DNA of 64,000 bases. Origin: Natronorubrum halalkaliphilum (GTDB lineage: Archaea; Halobacteriota; Halobacteria; Halobacteriales; Natrialbaceae). The position numbers were made by a program, and so were the translations under genes. Below the pieces are notes generated by a model, which worked only from the letters and a program-made list of their open reading frames with translations, searched no databases and had not been told where the DNA came from. The stretch covers positions 1-64,000 of the forward strand of contig NZ_WUYX01000071.1 of the NCBI RefSeq assembly GCF_009834785.1, read 5' to 3'. This document shows positions 189 through 20,752 of the stretch, one piece after another. The first letter of the stretch is position 1; each line of letters begins with the position of its first letter.

Positions 189-896
189 TCAAAGGAACTC
201 TCCAAGATTTCTCTGGGTCGTAAGTTCTGTAGTACAGAAGCCGGCAATATCGTCTATCGATTCTATGCTCGTCTTATTTGCAACCTGACCAGCAAAATTC
301 TCGAGATAGAGCCCTTTCAAAGCGACGACAATCGTTCCATGTTCCTTTGCCTGCTCAGTACGAGCTGGGATCGAAATGACGTTGGCGTACTGATCAGCGA
401 CTTCCTCTTGATTGAACGTCACACCGATCGTCTCTGTGGGGAGAACAGAGAGAGTTTCTGGGAGATCTATGGCTCGGTAGTAGTCGCTCCCAAGCGAGAA
501 AAAGACGATATCGTACGACTCAGACGAAACCATGTTGCGAATTTGCTCTACTATCCCGAGAGACTCAGCTCGAGACTCGATTTCAGCTGCAGCCATATCC
601 GCGAACGTAACGTTGTACGGCGGGAGTTCCTCGTTCTCTGCGACGAGACCGAATCCTGCGCTGATGAAGTGCCGATCCACACTATGTTCGTTGGCACGGA
701 GTGAATCAACTGCGTTACTGACGTATTGCTGTTGTCGGCCAGCGTAGAGTTTGCGTGCTGGAACGCTAACTACATCTTCTCGACTTCGAAGCGCATCAAG
801 GCTGGTATCATCGATCTCAGGTGCATCGAAAACGACGCTATCTCTGGGAGAGGATTTGCTGTTCGAACACTGGTCAATGATGAGCACCCTCATCAT
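189..896 (-). CDS. DUF6884-like protein, partner of the adjacent DpdA-like enzyme
   Basis: This 235-residue protein has no signal peptide or membrane segment. It shows the pattern I associate with the DUF6884 family: an early Cys-Ser-x-Ser-Lys (CSNSK, about residues 10-14), an ARKLYAGR segment near 47-54, a SAGFGLV turn, and PPYNVTF. Family members tend to sit beside DNA-modification transglycosylases; their biochemical role is not settled as far as I know. The start codon ATG at 894-896 shares one base with the stop codon of the dpdA-like gene upstream (TAATG-type overlap), so the two are probably translationally coupled from one transcript. A second ATG follows immediately at 893 and could be the real start. 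The family assignment is from motif memory, and no function is proposed beyond partnership with the transglycosylase. Confidence 0.7.
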   Translation of the reverse strand: MMRVLIIDQCSNSKSSPRDSVVFDAPEIDDTSLDALRSREDVVSVPARKLYAGRQQQYVSNAVDSLRANEHSVDRHFISAGFGLVAENEELPPYNVTFADMAAAEIESRAESLGIVEQIRNMVSSESYDIVFFSLGSDYYRAIDLPETLSVLPTETIGVTFNQEEVADQYANVISIPARTEQAKEHGTIVVALKGLYLENFAGQVANKTSIESIDDIAGFCTTELTTQRNLGEFL

Positions 897-3100
897 TAGA
901 ACTCCGACAGCCCCTTTTGAACCATGAACTTGGGCAAGAACTCGCTTTCATATCCGAGTCGCTCGAGAACGGCTGCTCGAAGCTCTGATGAATCCCGATA
1001 CGATTCTATGGCACATCCTTTCTCTTCAACGGCTTCGATGATCTCCTGGTCAACGGTTCCATCAGGATCGTACAGGAACAGGTTTTGATAGCGCGTGCAG
1101 AATTCGCTAATAGATGTCGCCATCTCGTCTTCGTCGAGCGACACCGATGTTGGTGATTCGGACCACCACTCGTGCACGCCGTCAGCACTCACAGTGCCGA
1201 TTTCTGCTACGGGTAGATCATGGACTTGCGACCAGAAGTCCGTCCGTTCCGTCAGGAGATATCCCTCCACAGTACTCCACGACTCGAGGGACTCAGAGTC
1301 TGGCGCAGCAACGAGCGTCTTCGGGAGTGCCTCTCGGAACTGATCGTAGAATCGTTTTGTGTTATGGAACCCGCGTCGCCGATTCCGGTTGTTCGCACGG
1401 AAGATTGCGACTTCGATTCCGTGCTCTTCGCAGATTCGACAGTCACACTCTCGCCACGGTTTCTCTCGAAGAAGCTTCCTGTACTCCTCGAGCAAGTTTT
1501 CGTCACCGATCCACGATGCATAATCTTCTACGAGGAGCCAGATCTGATTGAACGTAGCGACAGAACCTGACTCGTTCTCGAGCCGTTCGATCGATTCTGC
1601 CATTCTGGGGAACATCCCCTCGAAATGGTTGCAAGCAGTATCGATTAGCGATTGGTATTCATCAAAATCGAGCGGAGACTCGGGATCGTCGTCTCGAAGC
1701 AATTTGATTATTTTCTTTCGGAACGGGCGGCTGAAACTCGCCCGAAGTTCGCGACCGTGTTCGTAGTGATCTCGGAAATGTTCCTCGACGTCGCGTAGCA
1801 GATGGCGATTGTACTCTTCGTCGTGCCTGTGTTTTCTCAAATATGGAGCTAACTCATTGAGTGCTCGCTCCGCCTGAGCAGCCCACTCTCGAACCGCTTG
1901 TGAGATGGATTCACCCACATCGTATGCGCGAAGCGAGTGGAGGAGTTCTTGCCCACGAAGGGCAGTCTGGATCCGTTTCTCGAGTGGATCTCGATTAGAT
2001 CCGAACCGAACACGAAGGGCATCATAGCGACGTTCACTATTGAGATGATAGTTGTCGCCGCCTGTCCAGGCTGATCGGAGCATACTCGCACTGTCGAAGC
2101 TTGTCATCCCTGTTCGGCCGACTGTTTCAAACGCATCAGTTTTTGCGAACCCGAAAACGTGGGTATCGACTCGCGTCTTGCAATCTCGTTCGTGTTCTTT
2201 TATGGAATTCCCGACGCCAGTGACGATATCTCGAATTCGGCTCGCATTGCTTCCGGCGACGCCACCGATCCCGACGTACTGGTATCCAAGGTCGAGCACC
2301 TGATTCGCTGCTCGAGCGTACGACATCGGATCCCACCCCTGGATCGCAGCCATCAGTCGGAAGGAGTAGTCGTTATCATCGTACAACTTCTTCATCTCCG
2401 TGGCATTGTCGAGAGTCAACTGATAACGGAACTCCGTATCGTCCTCTCGATAGACGGCTCGGGGATCGTCGCGGAGCCGCTCAATGATCGTTGCTGGCTT
2501 GCCTTCGAAGTCTTCCCGACTGAATGGTTCGACGGAAGAAATGTCGGTGATCGTCGAGTTGTAGTCCAAGACGTATTCCGGCCAGTCCGTTGGCCACTCA
2601 TCAACCATGATATCGACATCGTCGGTTAACTCCTCAGGGAGGTCACTCGGTGTGAGCGGAGAGTCAGAGAACGCACGTTTATCGAGATAGAGGCGAGTTT
2701 CATGTCCGGATCCGAGGACGAGATGGTCGATTGTCACGCCGACGGAAACATCGAGGTCCTCGTAGAAAGCCAGCATCTCGTCGTTGTCATAGGGGGGAAA
2801 TGGGAGTGATTTGTAGCCCCAGGCACCACAGTCACTGATCGTCGGGAGCCAGTTAGGAACGTCGAGCCCTGACTGTTCGCCGTACACACCGTAGGATGTG
2901 AGGCGATCAAACTTCGTTGGACTCTCTTCGACCTGTTCTCGAGAAATTAGGACACCGTCTATCGGTATCGTTTCGTAGTCGAAGATATCCCAGATATACT
3001 GTAGCTCACGCTCGTTTTTCCCGAGCTCGGAATGCTCGTCGTGCTCAAAATCATAGTGAGCGTCGACGTTGTCATCCCATTCAGGAACGTAGAATTTCAT
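896..3100 (-). CDS. dpdA: DpdA-like DNA guanine transglycosylase (TGT superfamily)
   Basis: The 734-residue product resembles tRNA-guanine transglycosylases but is the size and divergence of DpdA, which exchanges guanine in DNA for a 7-deazaguanine such as preQ0. A (S)DCGAWGY segment places Asp90 where TGT has its first catalytic Asp. GVTIDHLVL surrounds Asp125. AIQGWDP (Gln254) and GIGGVAG (277-283) match the base-binding loops, and TSFDS puts Asp336 at the nucleophile position. Cys552-x-Cys554-x2-Cys557 with His579 forms the TGT-type zinc site. No PUA RNA-binding domain is evident, which favours DNA over tRNA. The preQ0-synthesis genes are not in the window, so the host's archaeosine pathway would have to supply the base. 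A TATA-like element lies about 31 bp upstream. Choosing DNA rather than tRNA as substrate is inference from length, context and the missing PUA domain. Confidence 0.78.
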   Translation of the reverse strand: MKFYVPEWDDNVDAHYDFEHDEHSELGKNERELQYIWDIFDYETIPIDGVLISREQVEESPTKFDRLTSYGVYGEQSGLDVPNWLPTISDCGAWGYKSLPFPPYDNDEMLAFYEDLDVSVGVTIDHLVLGSGHETRLYLDKRAFSDSPLTPSDLPEELTDDVDIMVDEWPTDWPEYVLDYNSTITDISSVEPFSREDFEGKPATIIERLRDDPRAVYREDDTEFRYQLTLDNATEMKKLYDDNDYSFRLMAAIQGWDPMSYARAANQVLDLGYQYVGIGGVAGSNASRIRDIVTGVGNSIKEHERDCKTRVDTHVFGFAKTDAFETVGRTGMTSFDSASMLRSAWTGGDNYHLNSERRYDALRVRFGSNRDPLEKRIQTALRGQELLHSLRAYDVGESISQAVREWAAQAERALNELAPYLRKHRHDEEYNRHLLRDVEEHFRDHYEHGRELRASFSRPFRKKIIKLLRDDDPESPLDFDEYQSLIDTACNHFEGMFPRMAESIERLENESGSVATFNQIWLLVEDYASWIGDENLLEEYRKLLREKPWRECDCRICEEHGIEVAIFRANNRNRRRGFHNTKRFYDQFREALPKTLVAAPDSESLESWSTVEGYLLTERTDFWSQVHDLPVAEIGTVSADGVHEWWSESPTSVSLDEDEMATSISEFCTRYQNLFLYDPDGTVDQEIIEAVEEKGCAIESYRDSSELRAAVLERLGYESEFLPKFMVQKGLSEF

Positions 3101-3130
3101 TCTAACACTTCAGGTATACTACTTCAGAGA

Positions 3131-3140
3131 TGTATATCTA
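3131..3140 (-). promoter_or_regulatory. TATA-like promoter element for the dpdA-like operon
   Basis: The plus-strand bases tgtatatcta read tagatataca on the minus strand and lie 31-40 bp upstream of the ATG at 3100. That is the expected position for an archaeal TATA box of a leaderless or short-leader transcript. Confidence 0.45.
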
Positions 3141-3160
3141 TCCGAATACTGGCCGGAGGT

Positions 3161-3168
3161 TTTTATAT
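3161..3168 (+). promoter_or_regulatory. TATA box with purine-rich BRE for the GIY-YIG-like gene
   Basis: ttttatat preceded by ggaggt lies 30-37 bp upstream of the ATG at 3198. This fits a leaderless haloarchaeal promoter. It sits 21 bp from the divergent dpdA promoter, so both transcripts could be controlled from one site. Confidence 0.5.
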
Positions 3169-3197
3169 CAAAATAGCACAAAGAGTAGACACCTCAA

Positions 3198-3908
3198 ATG
3201 ACTCGAAGTGAGGACATCAATCGATTCTATGGTCTGCTCGAGGACTTAGAACAGAACGTAGGAGGGAAACAGAAGCTCAAGGACTGCACTGGTTATATGG
3301 ACTGGCCCGATCGTGGAGTCTACTTCTTTTTAGCTCCGAATGAAACCCGAGACTCGAGTGATCAGCGTCGAATTACCCGTATCGGAACTCACGCAGTCTC
3401 TGAGGGAAGCAAGGCATCACTCTGGAATCGGCTTCGAACACATCGAGGGGCAATGAGTGGGACGTACGAAGGGGGTGGAAATCATCGAGGCTCCGTCTTC
3501 CGAAAACGAGTTGGTGAGGCAATTATCGACCGCGATGGATATCAAGAGGAATATCCTGAATGGGGGAATGGCTCGAGCGCTGACCGAGAACTTCGACTCG
3601 AAGAACTCGAGATGGAACAGCAGGTAAGTGAGTATGTCCGAGAGCTGCCGTTTCTTTGGGTCAAGGTAGATGACGAGCCAGGTCCCGAGAGTGAACGAGT
3701 CTATCTCGAACGAAACGCGATCGCACTGCTCAGTAACTACCAGAAGACAGCGATCGACGCCCGTTCTGAGAGTTGGCTCGGAAAATACAGTCGAAGTGAG
3801 GAAATCCGTCGATCGGGACTCTGGAACATAAACCACGTTGAGGAGAACTATGATTCAGATTTCCTTGATCTATTTGAGCAGAAAATCGAAGAAACCAATT
3901 CTATCTAA
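3198..3908 (+). CDS. GIY-YIG-like nuclease-fold protein
   Basis: This is a 236-residue soluble protein. An N-terminal segment contains GVYFF (about residues 35-39) and, 20 residues later, RIGTH. These are the two short beta-strand motifs of the GIY-YIG fold, followed by a conserved-looking LWNRLRTHRG helix and a GGGNHRGSVFRKRVG segment. I recall the N-H-R-G-S-x-F-R block from a widespread GIY-YIG-like family of hypothetical proteins in mobile and defence regions. The gene is divergent from the dpdA-like operon with only 97 bp between start codons. That suggests it could be the nuclease that reads the presence or absence of the modified base. Nuclease activity is inference: I cannot confirm every catalytic residue of the fold. 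Confidence 0.65.
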   Translation: MTRSEDINRFYGLLEDLEQNVGGKQKLKDCTGYMDWPDRGVYFFLAPNETRDSSDQRRITRIGTHAVSEGSKASLWNRLRTHRGAMSGTYEGGGNHRGSVFRKRVGEAIIDRDGYQEEYPEWGNGSSADRELRLEELEMEQQVSEYVRELPFLWVKVDDEPGPESERVYLERNAIALLSNYQKTAIDARSESWLGKYSRSEEIRRSGLWNINHVEENYDSDFLDLFEQKIEETNSI

Positions 3909-4025: not shown

Positions 4026-5753
4026 CTAACGGTCAACATTTCTTCCAAGGGTGAAAATGAAGAGTGCAACAAGTAATGTGCCTAATAATGCCTGAAGACT
4101 TGCTAAATATTTCGGGTAGAGCCCAATTGCTGTGTAAGTGTTACTTCCTAATGTAGTGAAATTTGAAATACTGAAATATATGCTATGGAGAAATATTTCC
4201 AGTGTTTCTGGATCAAAACAGGTGCAGAACTGTAATTTATAGATATCTCCATCTTCACCCTCGATTCCGCCGGCAAAAGGATAAATAATCGCCCATCCGA
4301 GAATTACAATGGCAGAAGCTATGAGGATATTGCTCAGCCCTTCACCATGGCGAGTAAGCCACCTGTTTATTGTCGATATTATAAATTTTAAATGATTGTC
4401 GGCTTCTCTATAGTAGCTACGTTTAGACTCCTCCTTTCGTATATGATATTGGTGTGCCTGATCAGCTAGTGAGTTTGCCGAATAAAGGGATTCCAGTTGT
4501 CTATATGTCCAAGCAGCAGCTTGCAATCGATTAACATCTTCTTCGAAGTGTATCTTAGTATTCGGGTCGATTTCATATTTACATTTGAGACCAAAATTTG
4601 TTTCATTATTTATCCGTGAGTTGTCTAATATTACTTGATATAACAAAGAGAAACGTAAATTACTACCTCTAAGATCAGCCTGCCCTAAGTTCGCGTTCTC
4701 TAAATTCGCATTTTTAAATGTGGCATTTCTTGCATTGCATTTGGTTAAATTAGCAAATGGGAACTCTGCCTCCTCTAATTCGGCTGATTGGAGGTTTGCA
4801 TTTTTGAGAACTGCTTCTTCAAAATCAACCCTTTGAAGTTTTGCTCGCTCAAAGCAGCATGCATCAAAAATAGTTCTTTTAAATGACGAATCATTTGCAT
4901 TTACATCCTTCAAATTAGATCGGGTTGCGTCACCGTCCGTGAAACTAACGTTAGAAAGATCCGCATCTTCAAAATTTGTATCAACACAATTTGCTTTCGA
5001 TAAAGTTGCCTCTGAGAAAGAAGCCTGTGTAACATCAGCATTATGTAAATTCGCATCCTCGAGATTAGAATGTGAAAGATTCGCTCCGGTTAGGTTAGTG
5101 TCAGTTAAATTCGTATATCGTAATTTGGCTCCAGAGAGATCTACCTCAGCCATATTATTCTTGGACAGGTTCCGATGAGTAAGACTCGAATTTGATAAAT
5201 TCGCTTTTTCTAATCTAGCTCCAGAAAGATCTGTGTTTGATAGATTTAGACTAGATAAATTCGACCGTCTTAAATTAGAGTTAGAAATGTCTGCGTACTC
5301 AAGATTTCCACCTCTGAAATCAGTATCGTTTAATGTCGAATCAGATAGTTGTGATCTTGATAGGTTGGAATCTCTAAAATCTGCTTGGAGAAGATTCGCC
5401 GAAGAAAAATCAGATTCCTTTAAATTAGCATTACGGAAATCAACTCTTTGATGAACACTCTCAGAAAAAGTAGCTCCTACCGCTTGTGCATTTATAAAAC
5501 TACAATCGGAGAATGAAATTTCATTTTCAAAATTCACTCCGTTTATGATTGCCCCATCAAGCCGTTCACCAGTTTCTGCTCGAGCATCTTTTAACTCATC
5601 AAGCGGCTTATCAGAAACGTCTGCATGCCAAATACAATATTCAGTCTCCTTCCATTCTGGTCTTTTACAATTGTATCCATCTACTTCTCCGGGTAGTTCT
5701 TCTTCTGTAATAGAATACGAACATTCATCGCAGCCGTTATTTTCTTCTAACAT
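4026..5753 (-). CDS. Pentapeptide-repeat protein with C-terminal two-TM potassium-channel-like pore
   Basis: This 575-residue protein has three parts. Residues 1-50 carry a Cys/His cluster (CDEC, then NC and CIWH) that may bind zinc. From about 60 to 390 there is a long run of A(N/D)Lxx-type pentapeptide repeats, expected to fold as a right-handed quadrilateral beta-helix. The C-terminal third has two hydrophobic helices (about 470-495 and 545-570) flanking an extracellular loop and a re-entrant segment reading NFTTLGSNTY. The last resembles the TTVG selectivity filter of two-TM potassium channels but lacks the usual GYG. Such fusions are common in haloarchaea, with unknown physiology. The gene is strikingly A+T-rich compared with everything around it. 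It follows a 141-residue gene by 11 bp on the same strand and is probably co-transcribed with it. Confidence 0.8.
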   Translation of the reverse strand: MLEENNGCDECSYSITEEELPGEVDGYNCKRPEWKETEYCIWHADVSDKPLDELKDARAETGERLDGAIINGVNFENEISFSDCSFINAQAVGATFSESVHQRVDFRNANLKESDFSSANLLQADFRDSNLSRSQLSDSTLNDTDFRGGNLEYADISNSNLRRSNLSSLNLSNTDLSGARLEKANLSNSSLTHRNLSKNNMAEVDLSGAKLRYTNLTDTNLTGANLSHSNLEDANLHNADVTQASFSEATLSKANCVDTNFEDADLSNVSFTDGDATRSNLKDVNANDSSFKRTIFDACCFERAKLQRVDFEEAVLKNANLQSAELEEAEFPFANLTKCNARNATFKNANLENANLGQADLRGSNLRFSLLYQVILDNSRINNETNFGLKCKYEIDPNTKIHFEEDVNRLQAAAWTYRQLESLYSANSLADQAHQYHIRKEESKRSYYREADNHLKFIISTINRWLTRHGEGLSNILIASAIVILGWAIIYPFAGGIEGEDGDIYKLQFCTCFDPETLEIFLHSIYFSISNFTTLGSNTYTAIGLYPKYLASLQALLGTLLVALFIFTLGRNVDR

Positions 5754-5764
5754 AGGGGAAAATC

Positions 5765-6190
5765 TTATTCTATGATTTCGAGGGTCTCCTTCACAGGTTT
5801 ATGAAGATGATTTTCAATTATTACCTCAGCCACAATTTCGTTTGCCCGGGGATCATCTCGCTGGCGATTTTGTTCAATACCTTCTTCTAACTCATCTCTA
5901 TCTAATAGAAGGACAATTTCAGTATGGTTTTTGGATATTATATACATTTGCCTTCTTAGTTCCTGATTGGCATTAGCTGGGGCGTGTATTGCTAACCGGT
6001 GGAATCGTTCTGCAAATTCAGGTGTTTTATTTTCTAGTCTAATATCGGTCATATCATCAAGGGTGTTTCTGTCATAAAACCCGTCTGCTTCTTCGATAGT
6101 TTGACTAACCTCTTGGTTCCAAGAATCCAAACTATAGTTAGGGCTATCCGATCTGTCTGTACTAACTATAGATTTTATTAGATCTTTCAT
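5765..6190 (-). CDS. Hypothetical protein, co-oriented partner of the pentapeptide channel
   Basis: A 141-residue, probably cytoplasmic, acidic protein that I do not recognise. It has an N-terminal charged region, a helical middle (AERFHRLAIH, then a Gln/Asn-rich stretch), and a C-terminal Glu-rich segment. No membrane segment or metal motif is visible. I start it at the ATG at 6190 rather than the GTG two codons upstream. The low G+C matches the downstream pentapeptide-channel gene and not the flanking genes, so the pair was probably acquired together. A regulatory or sensing role with the channel is a guess from position only. Confidence 0.6.
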   Translation of the reverse strand: MKDLIKSIVSTDRSDSPNYSLDSWNQEVSQTIEEADGFYDRNTLDDMTDIRLENKTPEFAERFHRLAIHAPANANQELRRQMYIISKNHTEIVLLLDRDELEEGIEQNRQRDDPRANEIVAEVIIENHLHKPVKETLEIIE

Positions 6191-6356
6191 TGTCACTCTA
6201 TTTTTACCGGATCTGTGATAGAGGTTATGTTCCTGTATTTGGATATGTATCGTAGCTACAGAGACAGGTGCTAATCATCCGATTCGATTTTTGAATGTGA
6301 TTTCCCATTTGGATGGGCTTAGTCCTACGGCCACAGACCCTAATGAATTACCAGTA

Positions 6357-6399: not shown

Positions 6400-6909
6400 A
6401 TGAGTGACAAGTACGAAGAGGGCCGACAAGCCAGCCAAGAATGGGCGAGATTAGGCGAAGACACCGAGCGAGCGGACGTCTATTGCCACGAAGATCACAA
6501 AACAGAATGGAAGAAAGAAGCCAAACACGAGGGACAAAGCCTCAGTCGATACCTCTACGATCTCGTCCAAGAGGCTCGTGCTTATCGGGAAGGTGGTCTC
6601 CCTCTGATCGCATCAAAAGACGAGCGGGTCGAAGAACTGCAATCCCGCATCGAAGAGCTACAGGACGAACTCTCTCGAGCTCAAAAAGAACAATCCGGTG
6701 GAACACGGATCACAGTTGATGATCTCACAGAGGAAGTTCTAACCGACCAGTATCAAACACTCGACGAACTCCTAGAGGACGTCAAGGCAACTGAGGAGGT
6801 CTCTGATCACCTTCGTCGACGACTCGAGGAACGACTCTATTCTCTCGCAGAGGATGAGGAAGTCGAATTCCAGCGAGGACATGGCTGGCGGTTTTCAGAG
6901 GGTGAGTAA
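6400..6909 (+). CDS. Ribbon-helix-helix/DUF5805-like protein upstream of the recombinase
   Basis: A 169-residue acidic protein. Residues 24-60 (RADVYCHEDHKTEWKKEAK, then SLSRYLYDLVQEA) look like the beta-strand plus two helices of the small haloarchaeal DUF5805/RHH-type DNA-binding proteins. Residues 75-100 are a short coiled coil (RVEELQSRIEELQDEL), and the C-terminal third is helical and charged. The stop codon is one base before the ATG of the tyrosine recombinase, a pairing often seen in haloarchaeal integrated elements. It may act as a directionality or copy-control factor, which is inference. Confidence 0.65.
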   Translation: MSDKYEEGRQASQEWARLGEDTERADVYCHEDHKTEWKKEAKHEGQSLSRYLYDLVQEARAYREGGLPLIASKDERVEELQSRIEELQDELSRAQKEQSGGTRITVDDLTEEVLTDQYQTLDELLEDVKATEEVSDHLRRRLEERLYSLAEDEEVEFQRGHGWRFSEGE

Positions 6910-6910
6910 G

Positions 6911-7846
6911 ATGTCTGCCGAACCCAACGAATCCAAGATCTACGAAAACAAGCATGGTGAGATCAACCGATTCATCAAACGAAAACGAGCCACCGGACGA
7001 AGCGAGAAAACGCTCAACTCGTATAGCCGCGTACTCCGTGAGTTCTTCCATGATCAATTTCCAGACCTCGAGCCCCAGGACGTCGAAGTTATTCATATTG
7101 AGGATTACGTCATGGCCCTCAATGAGCGTGACCTCACCCAGAACTCAGTAAAGAAATATCTCGAGGTCCTTTCGAGCTTCTACAGCTATGCGATGAAACG
7201 GCCGCACTTCGAGGGGATCACTGGTAACCCCGCTGCGGTGGTCATGGAAGAGATTCCACGAACATACCGCGACCGTCCCGACTGTGCGACGTGGCAGAGT
7301 GCCTGCAAAATCATCCAACATATGCCAGATCCTCGCGACAAGACCGTCGCGATCGTTCTTGCAAAGACTGGCTGTCGTCTTCTCGAAGGACTCTCGATTC
7401 GAGAAGAGGATCTGATGTTCGAAGAGGGGTTCATCAGGCTCCGGAATCGAAAAGGAGGGGGACAAACGGTAGTTCCCGTCGACGACGAGACGATCAACGC
7501 AATTAATCGGTACCAGTATATGATTCTCGATTCCGATTCTCCGTATCTTTTCACAAGCAACCAAGGGAATCGGATCTGCAAGGAGCGTATTCGTCGTGAG
7601 GTGAAACAAGCTGCAGACCGAGCTGGTGTGGCTCCTCTTGGGGAAACCAGATTTGAGAAGAAATTCACTCCACACACGTTCCGGACAGTATTCACGACCC
7701 TCATGCGGAACCAGGGGATGAAACAGCACATTCTAAAATACCTCCGAGGGGACGCCAAGACCGAGACAATGGACATCTATACCCGAGTCGATCGGGACCA
7801 GGCTCGAGAGGAATACATGAGCTGTATCAAGCGGATTGGGGTGTGA
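6911..7846 (+). CDS. XerC/D-type tyrosine recombinase (integrase)
   Basis: A 311-residue site-specific recombinase. Residues 15-100 form a SAM-like core-binding domain; the catalytic domain follows from about 125. Visible catalytic residues are Arg156 (TGCRLLEG), Lys181 (NRKGGG, the beta-hairpin lysine), His255-x2-Arg258 (HTFR) and the nucleophile Tyr290 (DIYTRV). The position normally held by His or Trp in LGH-type motifs reads Leu-Arg-Gly (278-280), a deviation seen in several archaeal integrases. I chose the ATG at 6911, which directly follows the stop of the RHH-like gene; a longer frame overlapping that gene is not needed. It marks an integrated element whose attachment sites I could not find. 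Confidence 0.9.
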   Translation: MSAEPNESKIYENKHGEINRFIKRKRATGRSEKTLNSYSRVLREFFHDQFPDLEPQDVEVIHIEDYVMALNERDLTQNSVKKYLEVLSSFYSYAMKRPHFEGITGNPAAVVMEEIPRTYRDRPDCATWQSACKIIQHMPDPRDKTVAIVLAKTGCRLLEGLSIREEDLMFEEGFIRLRNRKGGGQTVVPVDDETINAINRYQYMILDSDSPYLFTSNQGNRICKERIRREVKQAADRAGVAPLGETRFEKKFTPHTFRTVFTTLMRNQGMKQHILKYLRGDAKTETMDIYTRVDRDQAREEYMSCIKRIGV

Positions 7847-12138: not shown

Positions 12139-12642
12139 TTACAGCGTATCGATCTCTGCTTCTTCGAGCTTTTCTTCCTGAAGCAGTTTCTCAAGCGTCT
12201 CATCCCACTCTCCCTCAAATATGCTCAGAAGCCCGATCATATCAAACTCACCACGGTACTCCATCTCCCGGTTGATCTTGTCTACACCGGCATCCGCGTA
12301 CTGCCTGGCATACTCCCAAGCCTCAGTTTCGTCTACATCGTCGTGCCGGATCTTGACGAGTTCCCAGACGAAGTTGATCGCTTCCCTGTACTCGTCATTG
12401 CTGATGTTATCAATCTCGATGAAGTCCTGGCTGTAGTTACCCCGCGATTCCTCATTCCGGTTTTCATTTAGGAAACCGATGGCCAATCCTGCAGCGAAAA
12501 GCTCGTAGCCATCATCAAACGGGTATTCTGACTCAGGTCGATCAAGATCTTCATCATCATCAAGGGCCAGTCTCGCAGTACGCAGAACCAGATTCCGGTA
12601 GATGTTCTGCTTAGCGGTCTTGAAGGTTCGAGTAGTAGTCAT
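12139..12642 (-). CDS. pbeD: Phosphorothioation-dependent defence protein PbeD (by position)
   Basis: A 167-residue acidic, mostly helical protein, last gene of the Dnd-Pbe operon and overlapping the pbeC stop by four bases (ATGA). It shows a segment rich in aromatic and acidic residues (PFDDGYELFAAGLAIGF), a DVDETEAWEYARQYAD helix, and a Glu-rich C-terminus. I recognise no independent domain. The name follows gene order in the archaeal DndCDEA-PbeABCD system, in which the Pbe proteins together block replication of unmodified invading DNA. Its individual biochemical role is not visible here. Confidence 0.75.
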   Translation of the reverse strand: MTTTRTFKTAKQNIYRNLVLRTARLALDDDEDLDRPESEYPFDDGYELFAAGLAIGFLNENRNEESRGNYSQDFIEIDNISNDEYREAINFVWELVKIRHDDVDETEAWEYARQYADAGVDKINREMEYRGEFDMIGLLSIFEGEWDETLEKLLQEEKLEEAEIDTL

Positions 12643-14732
12643 TGTACCAACGCCTCCGGTTTATCCTCAATTTCAGGTTCAAACGGTTCCACGACTGAGG
12701 ACTTGGGATCTCCCTCTCGCTGACGGATCCGCAGGTGTCGGCTTGTTTGGTCCTTCACCTTGTGCAGATCCTCTTTGTGGAACTCATCCGGCTGGTACAG
12801 CATAATCACCTGATCCTTGAACTCGGGAAGATAGTTGATCAGGTTGTCCTTGTGAGTCGGGTCAAGTCGGCCGACAGGCGTGTCTATGACAACTGGTGCG
12901 TTACGGGCAGTCCATCGGTTAAGACCTGCGATGAATGCGTAGGCAATGATCTGACGGGCACCTTGGCTGGGGTCCTGCTCCTCTAATGGTCGAGTACCTG
13001 AAGAGGTGACTACGTCAAGTTCGTAGTTCGCGCTGATTTCCAGACCTTTGTACACTCCTTCCTTGTTCGTCAATCTTCGGAGAACTTCCGTGGCGTAATC
13101 CTGCACGTCCTTCCGACGCGACTCTACGTATCCTTCCTTAATCTCCTGCCAGGCATCACGGGATTTGCGGCACAGATTCCGCAGTCGTCTGTACCGTTCT
13201 TCTTCCTTGGTAGCCCCACCCATAGAGTCGATTCTATCCTCTTTGCTGTTGATCGCAGATTCAAGCCTGTCGATTTCGTCCTCGATATTGCTTATTGTCG
13301 AGTTGGACTCACCGATCTCCTCCTTGATACGCGATTTCTCCTCCCGGAGATCTTCAACATCCGACTTCGACATCGCAGCTTCGTCGATCTCCCCCTCTAA
13401 ATCAGCCTGCTCCTCTTCCAGGTCCTCAATTCGTTCCTCAAGATCCCGGACCTCGCTGTAGAGCCCGTGGTAATCGGTTTTCAGCTTATCAATCGTCCTC
13501 CCGTCACTGCTTTCTTTGAGATGATCTTGGTGTTTAGATGCTAACTGCCGCAGATCGTACTTTGCCTGTTTACTGTCGGACTGGAAACTTTCAAGAGACT
13601 GTTCCAAGATGTCCTCCTCTTCTTCCCCGATTTCATTACCGCAGAGACATTTTTCAACAGCTGGCTTCAACAGGTCGTTGATTACTCTCTCTTTTTCAGC
13701 CGTCTGTTCGACCTGGATCTTCTCCAAAACTTCGGATGTAGCGACACCTATCAGAATCGATCCGAAGTACGTGTGATAGTCCTGCAGCTCGTCCTTCTTC
13801 CTTTCGAGAATGTTGTAGAGGCCTTCTTCTTCCTCGTCAGTATCTGCTTCTTCCTCATCAACGCCGTTCAGCAGGTTATCTATATCGTCAATCCGGTCCT
13901 GCTTCTCGACTAACTCGACTGCATCAGCGATCTGGTTTTCGACTTTTTCAAGGGCCTTTTCCTTGTTCTCCAGAACTTGTTGCTCAGTATCCAGTTGCGT
14001 CTTCTGAGCACTCAATTCATCTTCCAGCTCACCTTTCTCATCTTTCAATGTGTCCAAGTCTTCTCTGTCAGATTCAGCTTCCAGATATTGCTCGTTGTAG
14101 TAACTCGCATTGTTATCCATATCGTCGATCGCTTTCTGGATTTGCTGAATCCCGAGGACAGTCTCGATAGCCTCTCGAATATCCTCTCGACTGTACTCTT
14201 CTTCCTCCTGAGTTCCGGCATACCGGTTCCCGACCTCCTCACCGTCGAAAAAGAAGAAGTTGGATGCGCTGGCAGGCAGGATGTTGTTCATGAACTGGTT
14301 GTATTCTTTCTCGCCATCCCGCTGAGCGATTATCGTCTCGTCCTCGCCTCCGTCTCCACCTGGAATGGTGACGGTTACTTCGGAGCGTTCAGGCTCTCTT
14401 TCGTCAGGGTCATCGACTTGCTCAAACTCGATGAATCGGGAGACACGGTAAACGGTATCGTTGTCGATGAACTCTACTGTGACACGGGTTTCGCCGTCCC
14501 CCTCAGTAGCAGCTCGTCGATTTATCGCTCTCCGCCACTTGGTGTTGATTTGTTGAAAGCTGCCGTCGTAACCGTAGAGACAGAACTTGAGGGCTTCTAA
14601 AAAAGCGGTCTTGCCTCGGTCATTCTTTCCGATTATGAAGATGAGAGGTTTGTCTTCTTCTATATTCAGAGGGACATTGACCTCATCGTAGAAGGGGCGA
14701 AAATTCTTGAGGGTTACTTCTAGTATACGCAT
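12639..14732 (-). CDS. pbeC: SMC/Rad50-like ATPase of the phosphorothioation defence module (PbeC by position)
   Basis: A 697-residue ABC-type ATPase. The N-terminal P-loop is GKNDRGKT (35-42). A FFFDGEEV segment near residue 150 recalls DndD/SMC-like proteins. Two long coiled-coil arms (about 190-280 and 370-520) surround a CLCG near residue 352, which could be a minimal zinc-hook-like apex. The C-terminal ATPase half has an ABC signature-like QGARQIIAYAF and Walker B/D-loop VVIDTPVGRLD. It is distinct from the DndD of the same operon, so the locus encodes two SMC-type ATPases. It starts two bases after pbeB. A role in sensing or stalling unmodified DNA together with the helicase PbeA is inference from the system. 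Confidence 0.85.
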   Translation of the reverse strand: MRILEVTLKNFRPFYDEVNVPLNIEEDKPLIFIIGKNDRGKTAFLEALKFCLYGYDGSFQQINTKWRRAINRRAATEGDGETRVTVEFIDNDTVYRVSRFIEFEQVDDPDEREPERSEVTVTIPGGDGGEDETIIAQRDGEKEYNQFMNNILPASASNFFFFDGEEVGNRYAGTQEEEEYSREDIREAIETVLGIQQIQKAIDDMDNNASYYNEQYLEAESDREDLDTLKDEKGELEDELSAQKTQLDTEQQVLENKEKALEKVENQIADAVELVEKQDRIDDIDNLLNGVDEEEADTDEEEEGLYNILERKKDELQDYHTYFGSILIGVATSEVLEKIQVEQTAEKERVINDLLKPAVEKCLCGNEIGEEEEDILEQSLESFQSDSKQAKYDLRQLASKHQDHLKESSDGRTIDKLKTDYHGLYSEVRDLEERIEDLEEEQADLEGEIDEAAMSKSDVEDLREEKSRIKEEIGESNSTISNIEDEIDRLESAINSKEDRIDSMGGATKEEERYRRLRNLCRKSRDAWQEIKEGYVESRRKDVQDYATEVLRRLTNKEGVYKGLEISANYELDVVTSSGTRPLEEQDPSQGARQIIAYAFIAGLNRWTARNAPVVIDTPVGRLDPTHKDNLINYLPEFKDQVIMLYQPDEFHKEDLHKVKDQTSRHLRIRQREGDPKSSVVEPFEPEIEDKPEALVQ

Positions 14733-14734
14733 TA

Positions 14735-14941
14735 CTATTCATCAGCTCCTTTGACTTCGACGTAGTCTTCGAGGACCCGTCGCAGTCTGTCGTCTATTCC
14801 GTGTCGACGTTTCATTCCCACCATCTCGTCCTCGATGTTGTATACCTGTATTAGAAGGTCTTCATCTATGTTTTTGTCATCAGCTTGCTCAGCTATCAGC
14901 TCGAGGATTTTCGGATCTATGTCTGATGTGTCAGTACTCAT
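14735..14941 (-). CDS. pbeB: Small phosphorothioation-defence protein PbeB (by position)
   Basis: A 68-residue, highly charged helical protein (DPKILELIAEQADDKNIDED, then a Met/Arg-rich helix and RRVLEDYVEV). Its start overlaps the pbeA stop by four bases and its stop is two bases from the pbeC start, which strongly supports that it is translated. Such a small helical protein between a helicase and an SMC-like ATPase is plausibly a bridging subunit. I see no known domain. Confidence 0.75.
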   Translation of the reverse strand: MSTDTSDIDPKILELIAEQADDKNIDEDLLIQVYNIEDEMVGMKRRHGIDDRLRRVLEDYVEVKGADE

Positions 14942-17097
14942 GTTGAGACAAAGGCTAGGTGTCCAAATCCGTAGGGCTCTAGTTCCTCGTTAAGTTTCAA
15001 CCGTATACTGTCTCTGTTTTCTGCAGCCTCCATAAATACCTTGGCTCGATTAAGCTCTTTCTCGATAAAGTTCCGGGCAGTGTCGTCTTGTTCGTTTGCG
15101 GAGAGCCCGGGCAGCGTGATCATATCGTAAACCATAGCTTTGTCTTTCTCTTCACTTTTTCGGAGTACTCGTCCTCTTCGTTGGATGAACTGCCGTTCGT
15201 TGCTTGTACTCGAAATAACAATACCGGTCGGGCAGTCAGGAACGTCCACACCTTCATCAAGACATTCAATTGCTAACAGATAATCGACATGTCCCTTATT
15301 AAATTGATAGAAAGCACTGCTCTTCTTTTCGGAGTCCATATCGCTGACGTACTCGGCAAACTGCTTATTCTGATTATTCAGTCGCTCCCGGATATCGTCG
15401 AGTTGCTCTGTATCCTCGCAGAAGATTATCGAAGGAGTGGGATGGTCAGATTTTAGGAACTCTTCGAAGCGGTCAGGCTTTGCTTCAGCTTTCTTTAATA
15501 TTTTCGCTCGTTTTCGCTGCCAGTCTTCTTTCTTGTCTTCTAATTTGTTTCGTTCGGTGGGGTCGGCGTCCTCAAGTTGTTCAACAACCTGTGCAATCCA
15601 CTTACTGTACTCCTTGTAGTCTTCGTACTCTTCTTCGTTCAGTTCACAAATCAGCGGATGGTATTCGTAGTCCGTCAGATATCCTTCTCGGACAGCTTCT
15701 TTCGTCCTATACTCGAAGATGATGTCTTCGAAATAGTCCTCTATCCTCTCGTTTCCTTTTTCATCTCGACGTTCAGGAGTCGCAGATAATCCGAGGCGTC
15801 GTCCAGCGTCATAGTCGAATAATTGGCTGAAGCTGTCCGCTCCGTACCTGTGGACTTCGTCAGCAACCAGCTGCAAGTGTTGCGGAGGAATGTCCTGGAC
15901 GAAGGCTTTGAAAGCATCTCCAATAGCGGTGTGGACCGTGGTTACGATAAACTGCTTTGGCTGATCTTGAATTAGATCTGGTGAGGCGATTTTGTACGGG
16001 TTGACTACGCTGATAATTCGGTCGTCCCAGCTTGTATTAGAGCTGCAGATCATTACGTCAGCGTCCGGTATCAGGTTCTCAATACTGCTTTTCCATTGGG
16101 TGAGGAGAGCATCTTTTGGGACAGCGACAACGGTCAACCGGCTATTTGCGTCGAGGTTTGCAGCCTTGATCGCGGCTCTTGTTTTCCCGGTTCCTGTCGC
16201 CATTGCCAGGATGCCAGTGTAATCATTGGCTATCCAGGTATCGACCGCTTCTTTCTGGTGAGGCCAAAGGGAGATTCCATCATCAGATTTGTTTTCAACC
16301 TCAGTCTCACCACTGGAGTCGTCTTCGAACATTTCCAGGTCCGGACGCCCATCTACTGTGTCCGGGCTATGTTCTTTCAGGCCTTCTTCAACAGCGTCAG
16401 GAAGATCCTTGACGATCACTCGGGGGTCTTCATTGTTCCAGAGCTTCTTGAAATGGCTCTGCTTTTCTGACGCCAACATATCGAGGCCGGGAGTCCAGTT
16501 GGGATAGACGTTAAACGATTCGTAGTTATCGGTCCATCCGAGTTCTGTTTCGTTTATAGAGCCTGAAAAAGCAGCTTTGTTGCCGTATTCATCTGTGAAG
16601 ACCCCGATTTTTTCGTGATAATGACTGAACGGATTGCTCTCGTCTGCATCCCGGAGATAAGCAATCTTGATCTCCAACAGATCCTCCTGGAGCATCCAAG
16701 CCATACACTTGAAACGGTCCTGCTTTAGGAAATCCGAGAACTGTTCAGCGGATAAGCCGCGGTGCAGAGCACCTTCGACAATTTCGCTTTCCTGGTCTTC
16801 GTCAGCCTCCCCTTCTGCTATTTTTTCTAGAACCTCGATATCGTTAGGGGATAGGCGTGGGGAAGCGATCAACCGCATCTTGCCCTCGTTGATAACGAGC
16901 TCTGAGACTCCCTGTGCGGCAATCGTCAGTGATTTGCTGTCGAAATAGCCCGCAGCCCGATCATATCTGTCAGCGTACTCCAAGCAAGGAATATAGAACT
17001 CATTCAGGAGGTCGTGTTCTCCAGAATTGTAGCTTACTTCTAGAGAAAGGGAATGGAGTCCTTTCGCCTCTTCTTCGTTTTCAATGCCTTCGGACAT
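14938..17097 (-). CDS. pbeA: PLD-domain plus DEAD/DEVH helicase of the defence module (PbeA by position)
   Basis: This 719-residue protein has an N-terminal phospholipase-D-like domain (residues 20-230; His161-x-Lys163 and a following SGSINETELGW block form a single HKD half-site). An SF2 helicase follows: Q-like LWPHQ at about 280, motif I ATGTGKT (300-306), motif II DEVH (413-416), motif III LSAT, and in the second RecA domain IIFCE, EGVDVPDC and QRRGRVLR. This architecture is like type III/ISP-type restriction helicases. It begins 25 bp after dndA and overlaps pbeB, so modification and defence genes appear to share one transcript. In the archaeal DndCDEA-PbeABCD system the Pbe part is reported to inhibit virus DNA replication rather than degrade the host genome. 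Nuclease activity of the PLD domain is unproven. Confidence 0.85.
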   Translation of the reverse strand: MSEGIENEEEAKGLHSLSLEVSYNSGEHDLLNEFYIPCLEYADRYDRAAGYFDSKSLTIAAQGVSELVINEGKMRLIASPRLSPNDIEVLEKIAEGEADEDQESEIVEGALHRGLSAEQFSDFLKQDRFKCMAWMLQEDLLEIKIAYLRDADESNPFSHYHEKIGVFTDEYGNKAAFSGSINETELGWTDNYESFNVYPNWTPGLDMLASEKQSHFKKLWNNEDPRVIVKDLPDAVEEGLKEHSPDTVDGRPDLEMFEDDSSGETEVENKSDDGISLWPHQKEAVDTWIANDYTGILAMATGTGKTRAAIKAANLDANSRLTVVAVPKDALLTQWKSSIENLIPDADVMICSSNTSWDDRIISVVNPYKIASPDLIQDQPKQFIVTTVHTAIGDAFKAFVQDIPPQHLQLVADEVHRYGADSFSQLFDYDAGRRLGLSATPERRDEKGNERIEDYFEDIIFEYRTKEAVREGYLTDYEYHPLICELNEEEYEDYKEYSKWIAQVVEQLEDADPTERNKLEDKKEDWQRKRAKILKKAEAKPDRFEEFLKSDHPTPSIIFCEDTEQLDDIRERLNNQNKQFAEYVSDMDSEKKSSAFYQFNKGHVDYLLAIECLDEGVDVPDCPTGIVISSTSNERQFIQRRGRVLRKSEEKDKAMVYDMITLPGLSANEQDDTARNFIEKELNRAKVFMEAAENRDSIRLKLNEELEPYGFGHLAFVST

Positions 17098-17122
17098 TAT
17101 TGGATTGTACTAGTGATGTTTG

Positions 17123-18304
17123 TCAGCTTATTTGTAGTTTCCGTAGGCGGGAGACGCTTTGAATCACTTTGTCCGTAGCGGATTCGATCTCTTCCCGGGT
17201 ATTGTCCTTCCCGAGTCCAAATCTTACTGCGGAGTGCCAGAGATCTTCGTTACCACCGAGTGCTTGAAGAACGTGCGAGGCTTCGACTTTGCCTGTTGTA
17301 CAGGCAGATCCCGCTGAGACAGCTAGTTCTGGTTGAAGGTTTTGGACCAGAGCTTTGTTTTCAACTCCGAAGAAGCTGACGTTCAGGTTATTGGGAATCC
17401 GCTTTTCTGGATGGCCGTTGAGAACAACATCGTCAAGTTCGCTGTCAAAACGATCCCACATGTAGGATGTGAGTTCGTCGACGTGCTGACGACGTTCTTC
17501 CATCTCTTTGTCGGCTAATTGTACTGCCTTGCCCAGTCCGACGATGGAAGGTACGTTGAGGGTGCCGGAGCGCCATCCGCGTTCGTGGCCGCCTCCGTGG
17601 ATGAGTGGATCGAGTTTGACTTTGGGGTTTCGTCGACGGACGTACAGTGCTCCGACACCTTTTGGTCCATAGATTTTGTGAGCAGAGATCGACATTAAGT
17701 CGATCCCCATTTCTTCGACGTCAATGGGAACATAGCCGATTGCTTGGACTGCGTCTGTGTGGAAGAAGACCTCGTTGTCTTTAGCGATTTCCCCAATTTC
17801 TTTAAGAGGTGCGATAGTGCCAATCTCGTTGTTGGCGGCCATTATGGAGATCAGAAGGGTATCGTCTCGAATGGCGTCTACAATATCGTCGGGGTCGATC
17901 AATCCGTTTTCGTCGACGGGGAGGTAGGTGATATCGAAGCCGCGTTCTTCTAACACCTCACAGGCCTCGAGGATAGCTTCGTGCTCTGTTTCCCCGGTGA
18001 TGATATGATTGCCTTTGTCTTTTCTCTCAGCGTAGTCAGCTACGCCCTTGATTGCCAGATTGTCGGACTCTGTTGCACCACTTGTGAAGATAATCTCTTC
18101 CTTCCGGCAGTTGAGGGCCTCTGAGATCTTTTCTCTTGCCTCTTCTACACCTTCCTTTGCCTTGGCTCCGTAGAGATGGTCGTCGCTAGCCGGGTTTCCG
18201 AAGCTCTCAGTGAGGTACGGCTTCATGTCGTCGGCTACTCGTTCGTCGACCGGTGTGGTAGCATGATGATCGAGGTAGACCGCGTCGTCAAGACTTGGAG
18301 TCAT
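17123..18304 (-). CDS. dndA: DndA cysteine desulfurase
   Basis: A 393-residue, full-length NifS/IscS-type, PLP-dependent cysteine desulfurase that supplies persulfide sulfur for DNA phosphorothioation. It has YLDHHATTP at the N-terminus, TSGATESDN around residue 75 for the PLP phosphate, SISAHKIYGPKG with Lys210 as the PLP Schiff-base lysine, and SAGSACTTG with Cys335 as the catalytic cysteine. In most bacterial clusters dndA stands apart or divergent. Here it is downstream of dndE with a four-base overlap, the CDEA order typical of archaeal clusters. It probably also delivers sulfur to the iron-sulfur cluster of DndC. Confidence 0.93.
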   Translation of the reverse strand: MTPSLDDAVYLDHHATTPVDERVADDMKPYLTESFGNPASDDHLYGAKAKEGVEEAREKISEALNCRKEEIIFTSGATESDNLAIKGVADYAERKDKGNHIITGETEHEAILEACEVLEERGFDITYLPVDENGLIDPDDIVDAIRDDTLLISIMAANNEIGTIAPLKEIGEIAKDNEVFFHTDAVQAIGYVPIDVEEMGIDLMSISAHKIYGPKGVGALYVRRRNPKVKLDPLIHGGGHERGWRSGTLNVPSIVGLGKAVQLADKEMEERRQHVDELTSYMWDRFDSELDDVVLNGHPEKRIPNNLNVSFFGVENKALVQNLQPELAVSAGSACTTGKVEASHVLQALGGNEDLWHSAVRFGLGKDNTREEIESATDKVIQSVSRLRKLQIS

Positions 18305-18714
18305 GGTAATCCACTATCCGGTTCCACGTCTGTCTCTTCTTTCAAGCTATTGGGAACCAGCGCCTGGAAGTCGCTGAGGTCGCTGATGTTTCCGTGGACC
18401 CTGATTACTCCTCGGTTTAGATGAGCTACGAACTCATCGAATAGATCTTCTTCAGGGTCTTTGTCTTCCTGGATTAGCCGTTCCTTCAGCAAAGCCATGT
18501 AGAGGGCGTCGTGTTCTCCGAGCAAGGTGTACCGGTTGAACGTTTGACCTTCGTTATCGTATTCCTCCGGGTTTGGTGGCCGGGGTTCATTCAGTGAGTA
18601 GCATAGGCCGATCCTGCAGAGATAGTTCGGTGTGAGACCGGTATTCCCTTTCAGCATTCGTAGCCGGTTCGTAGCGTCTGTACCTATCTGTATCCGGTTG
18701 AACTCTTTGCTCAT
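18301..18714 (-). CDS. dndE: DndE, DNA-binding subunit of the phosphorothioation complex
   Basis: A 137-residue protein with the DndE pattern: RLRMLKGNTGLTPNYLCRIGL near residues 17-37, GQTFNRYTLLGEHD near 60, and a terminal helix ending in HLNRGV. DndE binds nicked duplex DNA and is required with DndC and DndD for sulfur insertion. It overlaps dndD upstream and dndA downstream by four bases each. The C-terminal 30 residues (NISDLSDF to the end) extend beyond the bacterial core and are acidic. Confidence 0.9.
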   Translation of the reverse strand: MSKEFNRIQIGTDATNRLRMLKGNTGLTPNYLCRIGLCYSLNEPRPPNPEEYDNEGQTFNRYTLLGEHDALYMALLKERLIQEDKDPEEDLFDEFVAHLNRGVIRVHGNISDLSDFQALVPNSLKEETDVEPDSGLP

Positions 18715-20738: not shown

Positions 20739-20752
20739 TGATTAGAGAGAGT

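What the first reader, a model, noticed from the sequence alone, without database searches (positions are those of the whole stretch)
189..3908. Three-gene DpdA / DUF6884-like / GIY-YIG-like module: candidate chromosomal 7-deazaguanine DNA-modification and restriction system
The sequence shows a 734-residue TGT-type enzyme without an evident PUA domain (Asp90, Asp336 and a zinc site at 552/554/557/579). It is translationally overlapped by a DUF6884-like protein, with a GIY-YIG-like protein transcribed divergently from a shared 97-bp promoter region. Known bacterial Dpd islands have about ten genes including helicases; this set is minimal and lacks preQ0 synthesis, which the archaeosine pathway could supply. 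A small base-modification enzyme paired with a nuclease-fold protein would be a compact restriction-modification design.
Basis: partly seen in the sequence, partly recalled or inferred. Interest (0 to 1): 0.75.

Follow-up and report, generated by a model that had tools for sequence, protein, structure and literature searches.

The report
Compact DNA-guanine-swapping defence module, haloarchaeal
A salt-loving archaeon carries three linked genes: two that probably replace guanines in DNA with a modified base and trim it, and one that looks like a DNA-cutting enzyme; it is an unusual, stripped-down relative of known DNA-marking defence systems and ties a so-far unexplained candidate defence pair to that chemistry.

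Summary
The 734-aa protein is a true DpdA (NCBIfam DpdA 276 bits, cut-off 200; profile hits the solved DNA-guanine transglycosylase 7ui4, E 4e-57); D90, D336 and the C552/C554/C557/H579 zinc site are invariant in 56 relatives. The overlapping gene is DUF6884, with a YaaA-like fold and DpdC-like sequence. Across 62 distinct haloarchaeal dpdA loci, DUF6884 is adjacent (29) or fused to DpdA (33) every time.

Most haloarchaeal loci are not minimal: 53 of 62 also carry a second TGT, usually with a wHTH-like protein and a BrxD-like ATPase. The window's genome lacks the second TGT and the ATPase; its contig ends at an IS66-like repeat 105 bp past DUF6884.

The divergent gene is PADLOC candidate PDC-M57B. 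Elsewhere it often sits beside a stand-alone DUF6884; it is fused to one beside queC on a phage contig, and lies by queDEC in one genus. It adjoins DpdA-DUF6884 in only two genomes, this one and Halorussus salinisoli; both lack the second TGT genome-wide.

So the three-gene variant is probably real but rare. DNA modification is very likely; nuclease role and restriction-modification polarity are inferred. GIY-YIG identity rests on motifs only. The module lies in a defence island.

The parts
896..3100 (-). DpdA, DNA-guanine transglycosylase, 734 aa; D90 and D336 catalytic, zinc site C552/C554/C557/H579; helical insert about 407-535
   Evidence: NCBIfam NF041059 276 bits, cut-off 200; PADLOC DpdA E 1e-74; PDB 7ui4 E 4e-57; residues invariant in 56 homologues
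189..896 (-). DUF6884 protein, 235 aa, YaaA-like fold, motifs C10xxxK14 and S79AGFG83; DpdC-like candidate preQ0-DNA hydrolase or base-recognition partner
   Evidence: Pfam PF21818 31.7 bits; PADLOC DpdC E 9e-12; adjacent or fused to DpdA in 62 of 62 haloarchaeal loci; AF2 pLDDT 94.5; Foldseek YaaA 5caj E 1.4e-5
3198..3908 (+). GIY-YIG-like protein, 236 aa (PADLOC candidate PDC-M57B), putative nuclease
   Evidence: PDLC04714 E 2e-79; motif residues G40, Y42, R61, G63, R78, H82, E171, N180; next to DpdA-DUF6884 also in L189; fused to DUF6884 in L258
3101..3197 (.). 97-bp divergent intergenic region, presumed shared promoter region
   Evidence: sequence; not homologous by eye to the corresponding gaps of L140 or L189
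1..83 (.). end of an IS66-like repeat at the contig end; the operon cannot be followed beyond it
   Evidence: same 82-86 bases on nine other contigs of the genome, most at their ends; homologous stretch abuts an IS66 transposase gene in DL31
6854..7846 (+). XerA-like tyrosine recombinase of the island that carries the GIY-YIG gene (context, not part of the module)
   Evidence: NF040815 217.5 bits, just below its cut-off of 220; same integrase and 169-aa gene beside GIY-YIG in L135, L137, L139, L140, L141, L147

Best explanation
A compact, DNA-modification-linked defence module. DpdA exchanges guanine in DNA for preQ0 made by the host's archaeosine pathway. DUF6884, a DpdC-like YaaA-fold protein, then acts on the inserted base in DNA, most likely hydrolysing preQ0 to ADG and recognising the base. 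The divergently transcribed GIY-YIG-like nuclease uses DUF6884 or the mark to tell self from foreign DNA and cuts DNA of the wrong status, giving a three-gene restriction-modification-like system. It appears to have arisen by placing a DpdA-DUF6884 pair where the mobile PDC-M57 island normally has a stand-alone divergent DUF6884; in this genome and in Halorussus salinisoli it stands in for the larger haloarchaeal Dpd operon. Shown here: identity of DpdA, universal DpdA-DUF6884 linkage and fusion, the DUF6884 fold, GIY-DUF6884 linkage and fusion, and exclusion of the second TGT. Inferred: the chemistry on DNA, nuclease activity, and the direction of discrimination (cutting unmarked DNA).
For: DpdA passes the equivalog cut-off and matches the solved DNA-guanine transglycosylase 7ui4 through the catalytic and zinc regions; catalytic residues invariant. 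DUF6884 is linked in 62 of 62 haloarchaeal loci, 33 of them C-terminal fusions. Bacteria carry the fusion in the opposite order and Asgard archaea have separate neighbours; the virus HRTV-29 has DUF6884 overlapping DpdA. DUF6884 resembles DpdC and folds like YaaA. GIY is coupled to DUF6884 in several ways: divergent, convergent or co-directional in about half of the sampled loci, on a Deinococcus plasmid, and fused beside queC on a phage contig. It is beside queDEC genes in four genomes of one genus. GIY-DpdA-DUF6884 recurs in L189. Both genomes with it lack the second TGT, while all eight other genomes tested have it. The host has QueC. The window is a defence island with a Dnd-Pbe system.
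Against: Only two genomes show the three genes together, and defence islands and mobile regions make some juxtaposition expected by chance. Most GIY-YIG genes live without DpdA, so GIY does not need a DpdA mark; that argues against simple restriction-modification polarity. No profile or structure match confirms GIY-YIG (model pLDDT 60). DpdB and all dpdD-K genes are absent from the module, and a minimal DpdA system without an ATPase is unproven. The contig ends at an IS, so further genes may be missing in this assembly. No DNA nucleoside data exist for this organism.
Confidence: 0.48

Rival explanations
1. Two separate modules side by side: a DpdA-DUF6884 modification pair that has lost its partners, and an intact PDC-M57-type nuclease that attacks viral DNA carrying 7-deazaguanines (type IV-like), for example haloviruses that modify their DNA. 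DUF6884 homologues would be base readers in both.
For: GIY pairs with stand-alone DUF6884 without DpdA in many loci; it is found on a Deinococcus plasmid and in phage contigs; haloviruses with dPreQ1 and other 7-deazaguanine DNA are known (PMC6884629). GIY- and DpdA-bearing genomes do not overlap more than expected.
Against: The same divergent arrangement with DpdA-DUF6884 arose twice, with different dpdA architectures and GIY branches, and only in genomes without the second TGT. A nuclease against 7-deazaguanine DNA next to an active DpdA would endanger the host unless DUF6884 protects it.
Confidence: 0.3
2. Decaying island: the operon lost its second TGT, wHTH and ATPase genes by IS66-type transposition, and the GIY-YIG gene is a chance neighbour. 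The locus is a non-functional remnant.
For: An IS66-like end lies 105 bp after DUF6884, close to where relatives begin the second TGT; second TGT and ATPase absent from the genome.
Against: dpdA, DUF6884 and GIY-YIG are intact with all conserved residues. The 105 bp before the IS contain no second-TGT start, so the IS did not simply interrupt that gene. L189 shows the same set with no contig end nearby.
Confidence: 0.15
3. The 734-aa protein is a tRNA-modifying TGT paralogue and the cluster concerns tRNA, not DNA.
For: Distant membership of the TGT superfamily (Pfam TGT 13.6 bits, below cut-off).
Against: NCBIfam DpdA equivalog and the DNA-guanine transglycosylase structure match; no PUA domain; the genome keeps separate archaeal TGT-family genes on C6.
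Confidence: 0.04

Closest known systems
Bacterial Dpd systems (dpdA-K, Salmonella Montevideo type)
   Same: DpdA family with the same catalytic and zinc residues; a DUF6884/DpdC-type protein next to dpdA; preQ0 as substrate (summary of Dpd biology read in PMC11888242)
   Different: No DpdB, no dpdD-K; DUF6884 only covers the DpdC N-terminal part; DpdA has a long helical insert and C-terminal extension; a GIY-YIG-like gene instead of the restriction operon
Haloarchaeal two-TGT Dpd operon (e.g. Haloarcula vallismortis, L207; its DpdA EMA11768 in AOLQ01000002 is mentioned in PMC6884629)
   Same: Homologous DpdA and DUF6884 in the same order
   Different: The window lacks the second TGT, wHTH-like gene and BrxD-like ATPase, and the optional helicase/PLD and preQ0 genes nearby; it has GIY-YIG
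PADLOC candidate system PDC-M57 (M57A DUF6884 + M57B)
   Same: Same M57B protein family, same integrase-bearing island type, DUF6884 in the divergent unit
   Different: The DUF6884 is of the DpdA-linked subfamily and comes with DpdA; no publication on M57 was found
Halorubrum virus HRTV-29 DpdA locus
   Same: DUF6884 ('YaaA') gene overlapping a DpdA gene
   Different: Short viral DpdA, opposite gene order, no GIY-YIG annotated beside it
BREX-related capture (BRC) systems with TGT (PMC12839542)
   Same: TGT homologue in a defence setting
   Different: BRC has PglZ, HerA/FtsK, DUF6079 and GNAT and no DpdC homologue; none of these lie in this module

Membership tests
Dpd (7-deazapurine in DNA) | DpdA, a DNA-specific TGT homologue with two catalytic Asp and a zinc site | tested here: met
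   NF041059 276 bits over cut-off 200; 7ui4 E 4e-57; residues invariant
Dpd (7-deazapurine in DNA) | DpdC, converting dPreQ0 to dADG | tested here: inconclusive
   DUF6884 matches the N-terminal third of PADLOC DpdC models, E 9e-12; activity not testable
Dpd (7-deazapurine in DNA) | DpdB (DndB/ParB-like ATPase) beside dpdA | tested here: not met
   no DpdB hit among window neighbours or conserved haloarchaeal neighbours
Dpd (7-deazapurine in DNA) | Restriction operon dpdD-K | tested here: not met
   none in the module; the contig ends 188 bp beyond DUF6884, and beyond it only the second TGT and the ATPase were searched for in the genome
Dpd (7-deazapurine in DNA) | 7-deazaguanine nucleosides in genomic DNA | not testable with these tools
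   needs LC-MS
Haloarchaeal two-TGT Dpd operon (defined here) | Second TGT + wHTH-like + BrxD-like ATPase in the genome | tested here: not met
   second TGT and ATPase absent from the genome; the wHTH-like gene was not searched for separately
PDC-M57 (PADLOC) | M57B protein | tested here: met
   PDLC04714 E 2e-79
PDC-M57 (PADLOC) | M57A, a DUF6884 protein next to M57B | tested here: inconclusive
   the DUF6884 is separated from GIY by dpdA and matches M57A only weakly, E 2e-7
GIY-YIG nuclease superfamily | Ordered GIY, YIG, Arg/His, Glu, Asn motif on the beta-beta-alpha-alpha-beta-alpha fold | tested here: inconclusive
   motif order conserved and matching element order in a weak model, pLDDT 60; no Pfam, PDB-sequence, Foldseek or hhalign match
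BRC (BREX-related capture) systems | HerA/FtsK translocase and PglZ with TGT | tested here: not met
   no such proteins among the PADLOC or Pfam matches of the window genes scanned around the module

The most novel reading that the evidence does not exclude
DUF6884 is a general 7-deazaguanine-DNA reader or hydrolase that couples either to DpdA (writer) or to the PDC-M57 GIY-YIG nuclease (cutter). The window shows all three combined into an unusually small 7-deazaguanine restriction-modification system, and PDC-M57 by itself would be a so far unexplained class of 7-deazaguanine-directed defence found in archaea, bacteria and phages.
Probability: 0.35. Interest if true: 0.78.

Novelty: new variant of a known kind. 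Interest (0 to 1): 0.6.

Why it matters
If true, guanine-replacement immunity can work with three genes instead of about ten, without the helicases and ATPases that accompany it elsewhere. It also gives a first functional handle on a candidate defence pair (PDC-M57) for which no published explanation was found, by tying its nuclease-like protein to the 7-deazaguanine chemistry that haloviruses use to escape restriction. Separately, the comparison shows that haloarchaea have a characteristic Dpd operon with two TGT enzymes and, in half the cases, a DpdA-DUF6884 fusion.

Tried and rejected
(1) 'Minimal three-gene set is the normal form' was rejected: 53 of 62 loci have the second TGT, and 52 have all three extra genes. 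(2) 'Minimal only because the contig is cut': considered first, then weakened. The genome has no second TGT or ATPase anywhere, the 105 bp before the IS lack a second-TGT start, and L189 has the same set in an uninterrupted contig. (3) GIY-YIG proof by profile or fold failed: Pfam, PDB sequences, AF2 (pLDDT 60), Foldseek, and hhalign against E. coli YhbQ. (4) DpdA in IMG/VR: no relative; only one distant match in the phage collection. (5) Inteins suspected in long DpdA proteins; the two read here are a repeat-rich insert (L088) and a tandem duplication (L087), not inteins by inspection. (7) My first regular-expression test for DUF6884 partners was too strict and was replaced by profiles.
Full report
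WHAT IS THERE. The window is the first 64 kb of a 216-kb contig (C46) of a 4.56-Mb haloarchaeal assembly; window base 1 is the contig end. Three intact genes occupy 189-3908 exactly as described. The stop of dpdA and the start of the DUF6884 gene share a base, and 97 bp separate dpdA from the divergent gene.

DpdA. The 734-aa protein scores 276 bits against NCBIfam DpdA (cut-off 200) and E 1e-74 against PADLOC DpdA, but only 13.6 bits against Pfam TGT. Its family profile finds the solved DNA-guanine transglycosylase 7ui4 at E 4e-57, aligned through the catalytic and zinc regions. D90, D336, C552, C554, C557 and H579 are invariant in 56 homologues. No PUA domain was found. The genome has other TGT-family genes on contig C6.

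DUF6884. The 235-aa protein passes Pfam DUF6884 narrowly and matches DpdC models over its first ~110 residues. An AlphaFold2 model from 31 homologues has pLDDT 94.5; the best solved match is YaaA, 5caj, E 1.4e-5. C10, K14, S79, A80 and G83 are invariant across archaeal and bacterial homologues. A published Pfam note describes DUF6884 as YaaA-like with CxxxK and LSAxxG motifs and a possible DNA-lesion role (PMC11701544), and DpdC is listed as carrying DUF6884 (PMC11888242).

LINKAGE OF THE PAIR. In 62 distinct haloarchaeal dpdA loci the DUF6884 domain is always present: 29 as the next gene, 33 fused to the C-terminus of DpdA. In cyanobacteria, Paenibacillus and others it is fused in front of DpdA; in Asgard archaea it is a neighbouring gene. 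In halovirus HRTV-29 it overlaps the dpdA gene. Independent fusions in both orders are strong evidence that the two act together.

THE USUAL HALOARCHAEAL OPERON IS LARGER. Downstream of DpdA-DUF6884, 53 of 62 loci have a second TGT (344 aa, Pfam TGT 92 bits), 53 a 298-aa protein and 54 a BrxC/D-like ATPase; 52 have all three. The name wHTH for the 298-aa protein is mine; it has no Pfam hit. Many loci add a large helicase and a PLD-domain protein, or folE/queCDE and a YhhQ-type transporter. Haloarcula vallismortis, whose DpdA was mentioned as possibly modifying HVTV-1 DNA (PMC6884629), has this full form (L207). The window's genome has no second TGT and no such ATPase. Window bases 1-83 are a repeat found on nine other contigs, mostly at their ends; a homologous stretch lies next to an IS66 transposase gene in another haloarchaeon. 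The 105 bp between DUF6884 and this repeat do not contain the start of a second TGT, which in relatives comes about 80 bp after DUF6884.

THE GIY-YIG-LIKE GENE. It belongs to PADLOC candidate PDC-M57B (E 2e-79), and the family occurs in 95 of 391 sampled haloarchaeal genomes. G40-Y42, R61-G63, R78-H82, E171 and N180 are invariant or nearly so, in the order known for GIY-YIG nucleases (own knowledge). No Pfam, PDB-sequence, Foldseek or hhalign match supports this, and the model is poor (pLDDT 60), so the fold is likely but unproven. About half of the sampled relatives lie next to a DUF6884 protein, in divergent, convergent and co-directional arrangements. A phage contig has DUF6884 and GIY fused in one protein next to queC. 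Other phage contigs and a Deinococcus plasmid have the two as neighbours. In four genomes of one genus GIY is beside queD/queE/queC (one of the four shows queC only). The window's GIY, 169-aa gene and integrase belong to the same island type as in L140 of the same genus, where a stand-alone DUF6884 occupies the divergent position.

IS THE TRIO REAL? GIY is beside dpdA in 2 of 62 loci: here and in Halorussus salinisoli (L189/L250). The two GIY proteins fall in different branches, each near stand-alone M57 loci; one DpdA is unfused and the other fused. Both genomes lack the second TGT, whereas all eight other genomes tested have it, seven of them genomes with a dpdA locus that lacks it nearby. 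If two loci were drawn at random from 62, the chance of hitting exactly these is 1 in 1891. A crude estimate gives 0.009 expected adjacencies under random gene order; even with an assumed 20-fold enrichment of defence islands, two or more would be seen with probability about 0.015. With n = 2 and a post hoc comparison this is suggestive, not proof.

MECHANISM. Most likely DpdA inserts preQ0, supplied by the host (QueC on contig C14), into DNA; DUF6884 acts on the inserted base as DpdC does; and the GIY-YIG-like protein uses DUF6884 or the mark to tell self from non-self. Identity and association are shown; chemistry and polarity are inferred. The main rival is that M57 is a separate, type IV-like attack on modified viral DNA that happens to sit beside a Dpd remnant.

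CONTEXT. The same window holds a Dnd-Pbe phosphorothioation system at 12639-22234 (DndC, DndD, DndA, PbeA, PbeC), so this is a defence island. That makes a defence role plausible but also makes chance neighbours more likely.

VERDICT.

Noticed in passing
window 12639-22234: A Dnd-Pbe phosphorothioation system (DndC, DndD, DndA, PbeA, PbeC), so the DpdA module lies in a defence island.
   Followed up: partly
window 4026-5753 and 5765-6196: A 575-aa pentapeptide-repeat protein with a C-terminal ion-channel domain, weakly like the Hailong effector HalA (58 bits, cut-off 250), with a 143-aa gene of unknown family beside it: possible further defence pair.
   Followed up: no
L258:4701-6576: Phage contig (IMG/VR) with QueC followed by a 420-aa fusion of DUF6884 and the GIY-YIG-like domain, then a SIR2-like/AAA protein and a nucleoside deoxyribosyltransferase.
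   Followed up: partly
L163, L274, L275, L276: In four genomes of one genus the GIY-YIG-like gene is directly beside preQ0 genes, queD/queE/queC (only queC seen in L275).
   Followed up: partly
L033-L088, L174-L207: Haloarchaeal Dpd operon with two TGT-family enzymes, a DpdA-DUF6884 fusion in half the cases, a 298-aa protein without Pfam match and a BrxD-like ATPase, with interchangeable helicase/PLD or other neighbours; no description found in the papers searched.
   Followed up: partly
L266, L267: DUF6884 and GIY-YIG-like genes as a two-gene cargo between capsid-region genes of a phage contig.
   Followed up: no
L298 (Picosynechococcus plasmid) and Paenibacillus/Brevibacillus loci L219, L237, L242, L243: Bacterial loci also combine a DpdA-DUF6884 fusion with a second TGT gene and large helicases.
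   Followed up: no
L087, L088: DpdA proteins with an internal tandem duplication (L087) and a repeat-rich ~195-aa insert (L088).
   Followed up: partly
L296 (HRTV-29): Halovirus HRTV-29 carries DUF6884 overlapping its DpdA gene, annotated as 'peroxide stress protein YaaA'.
   Followed up: no
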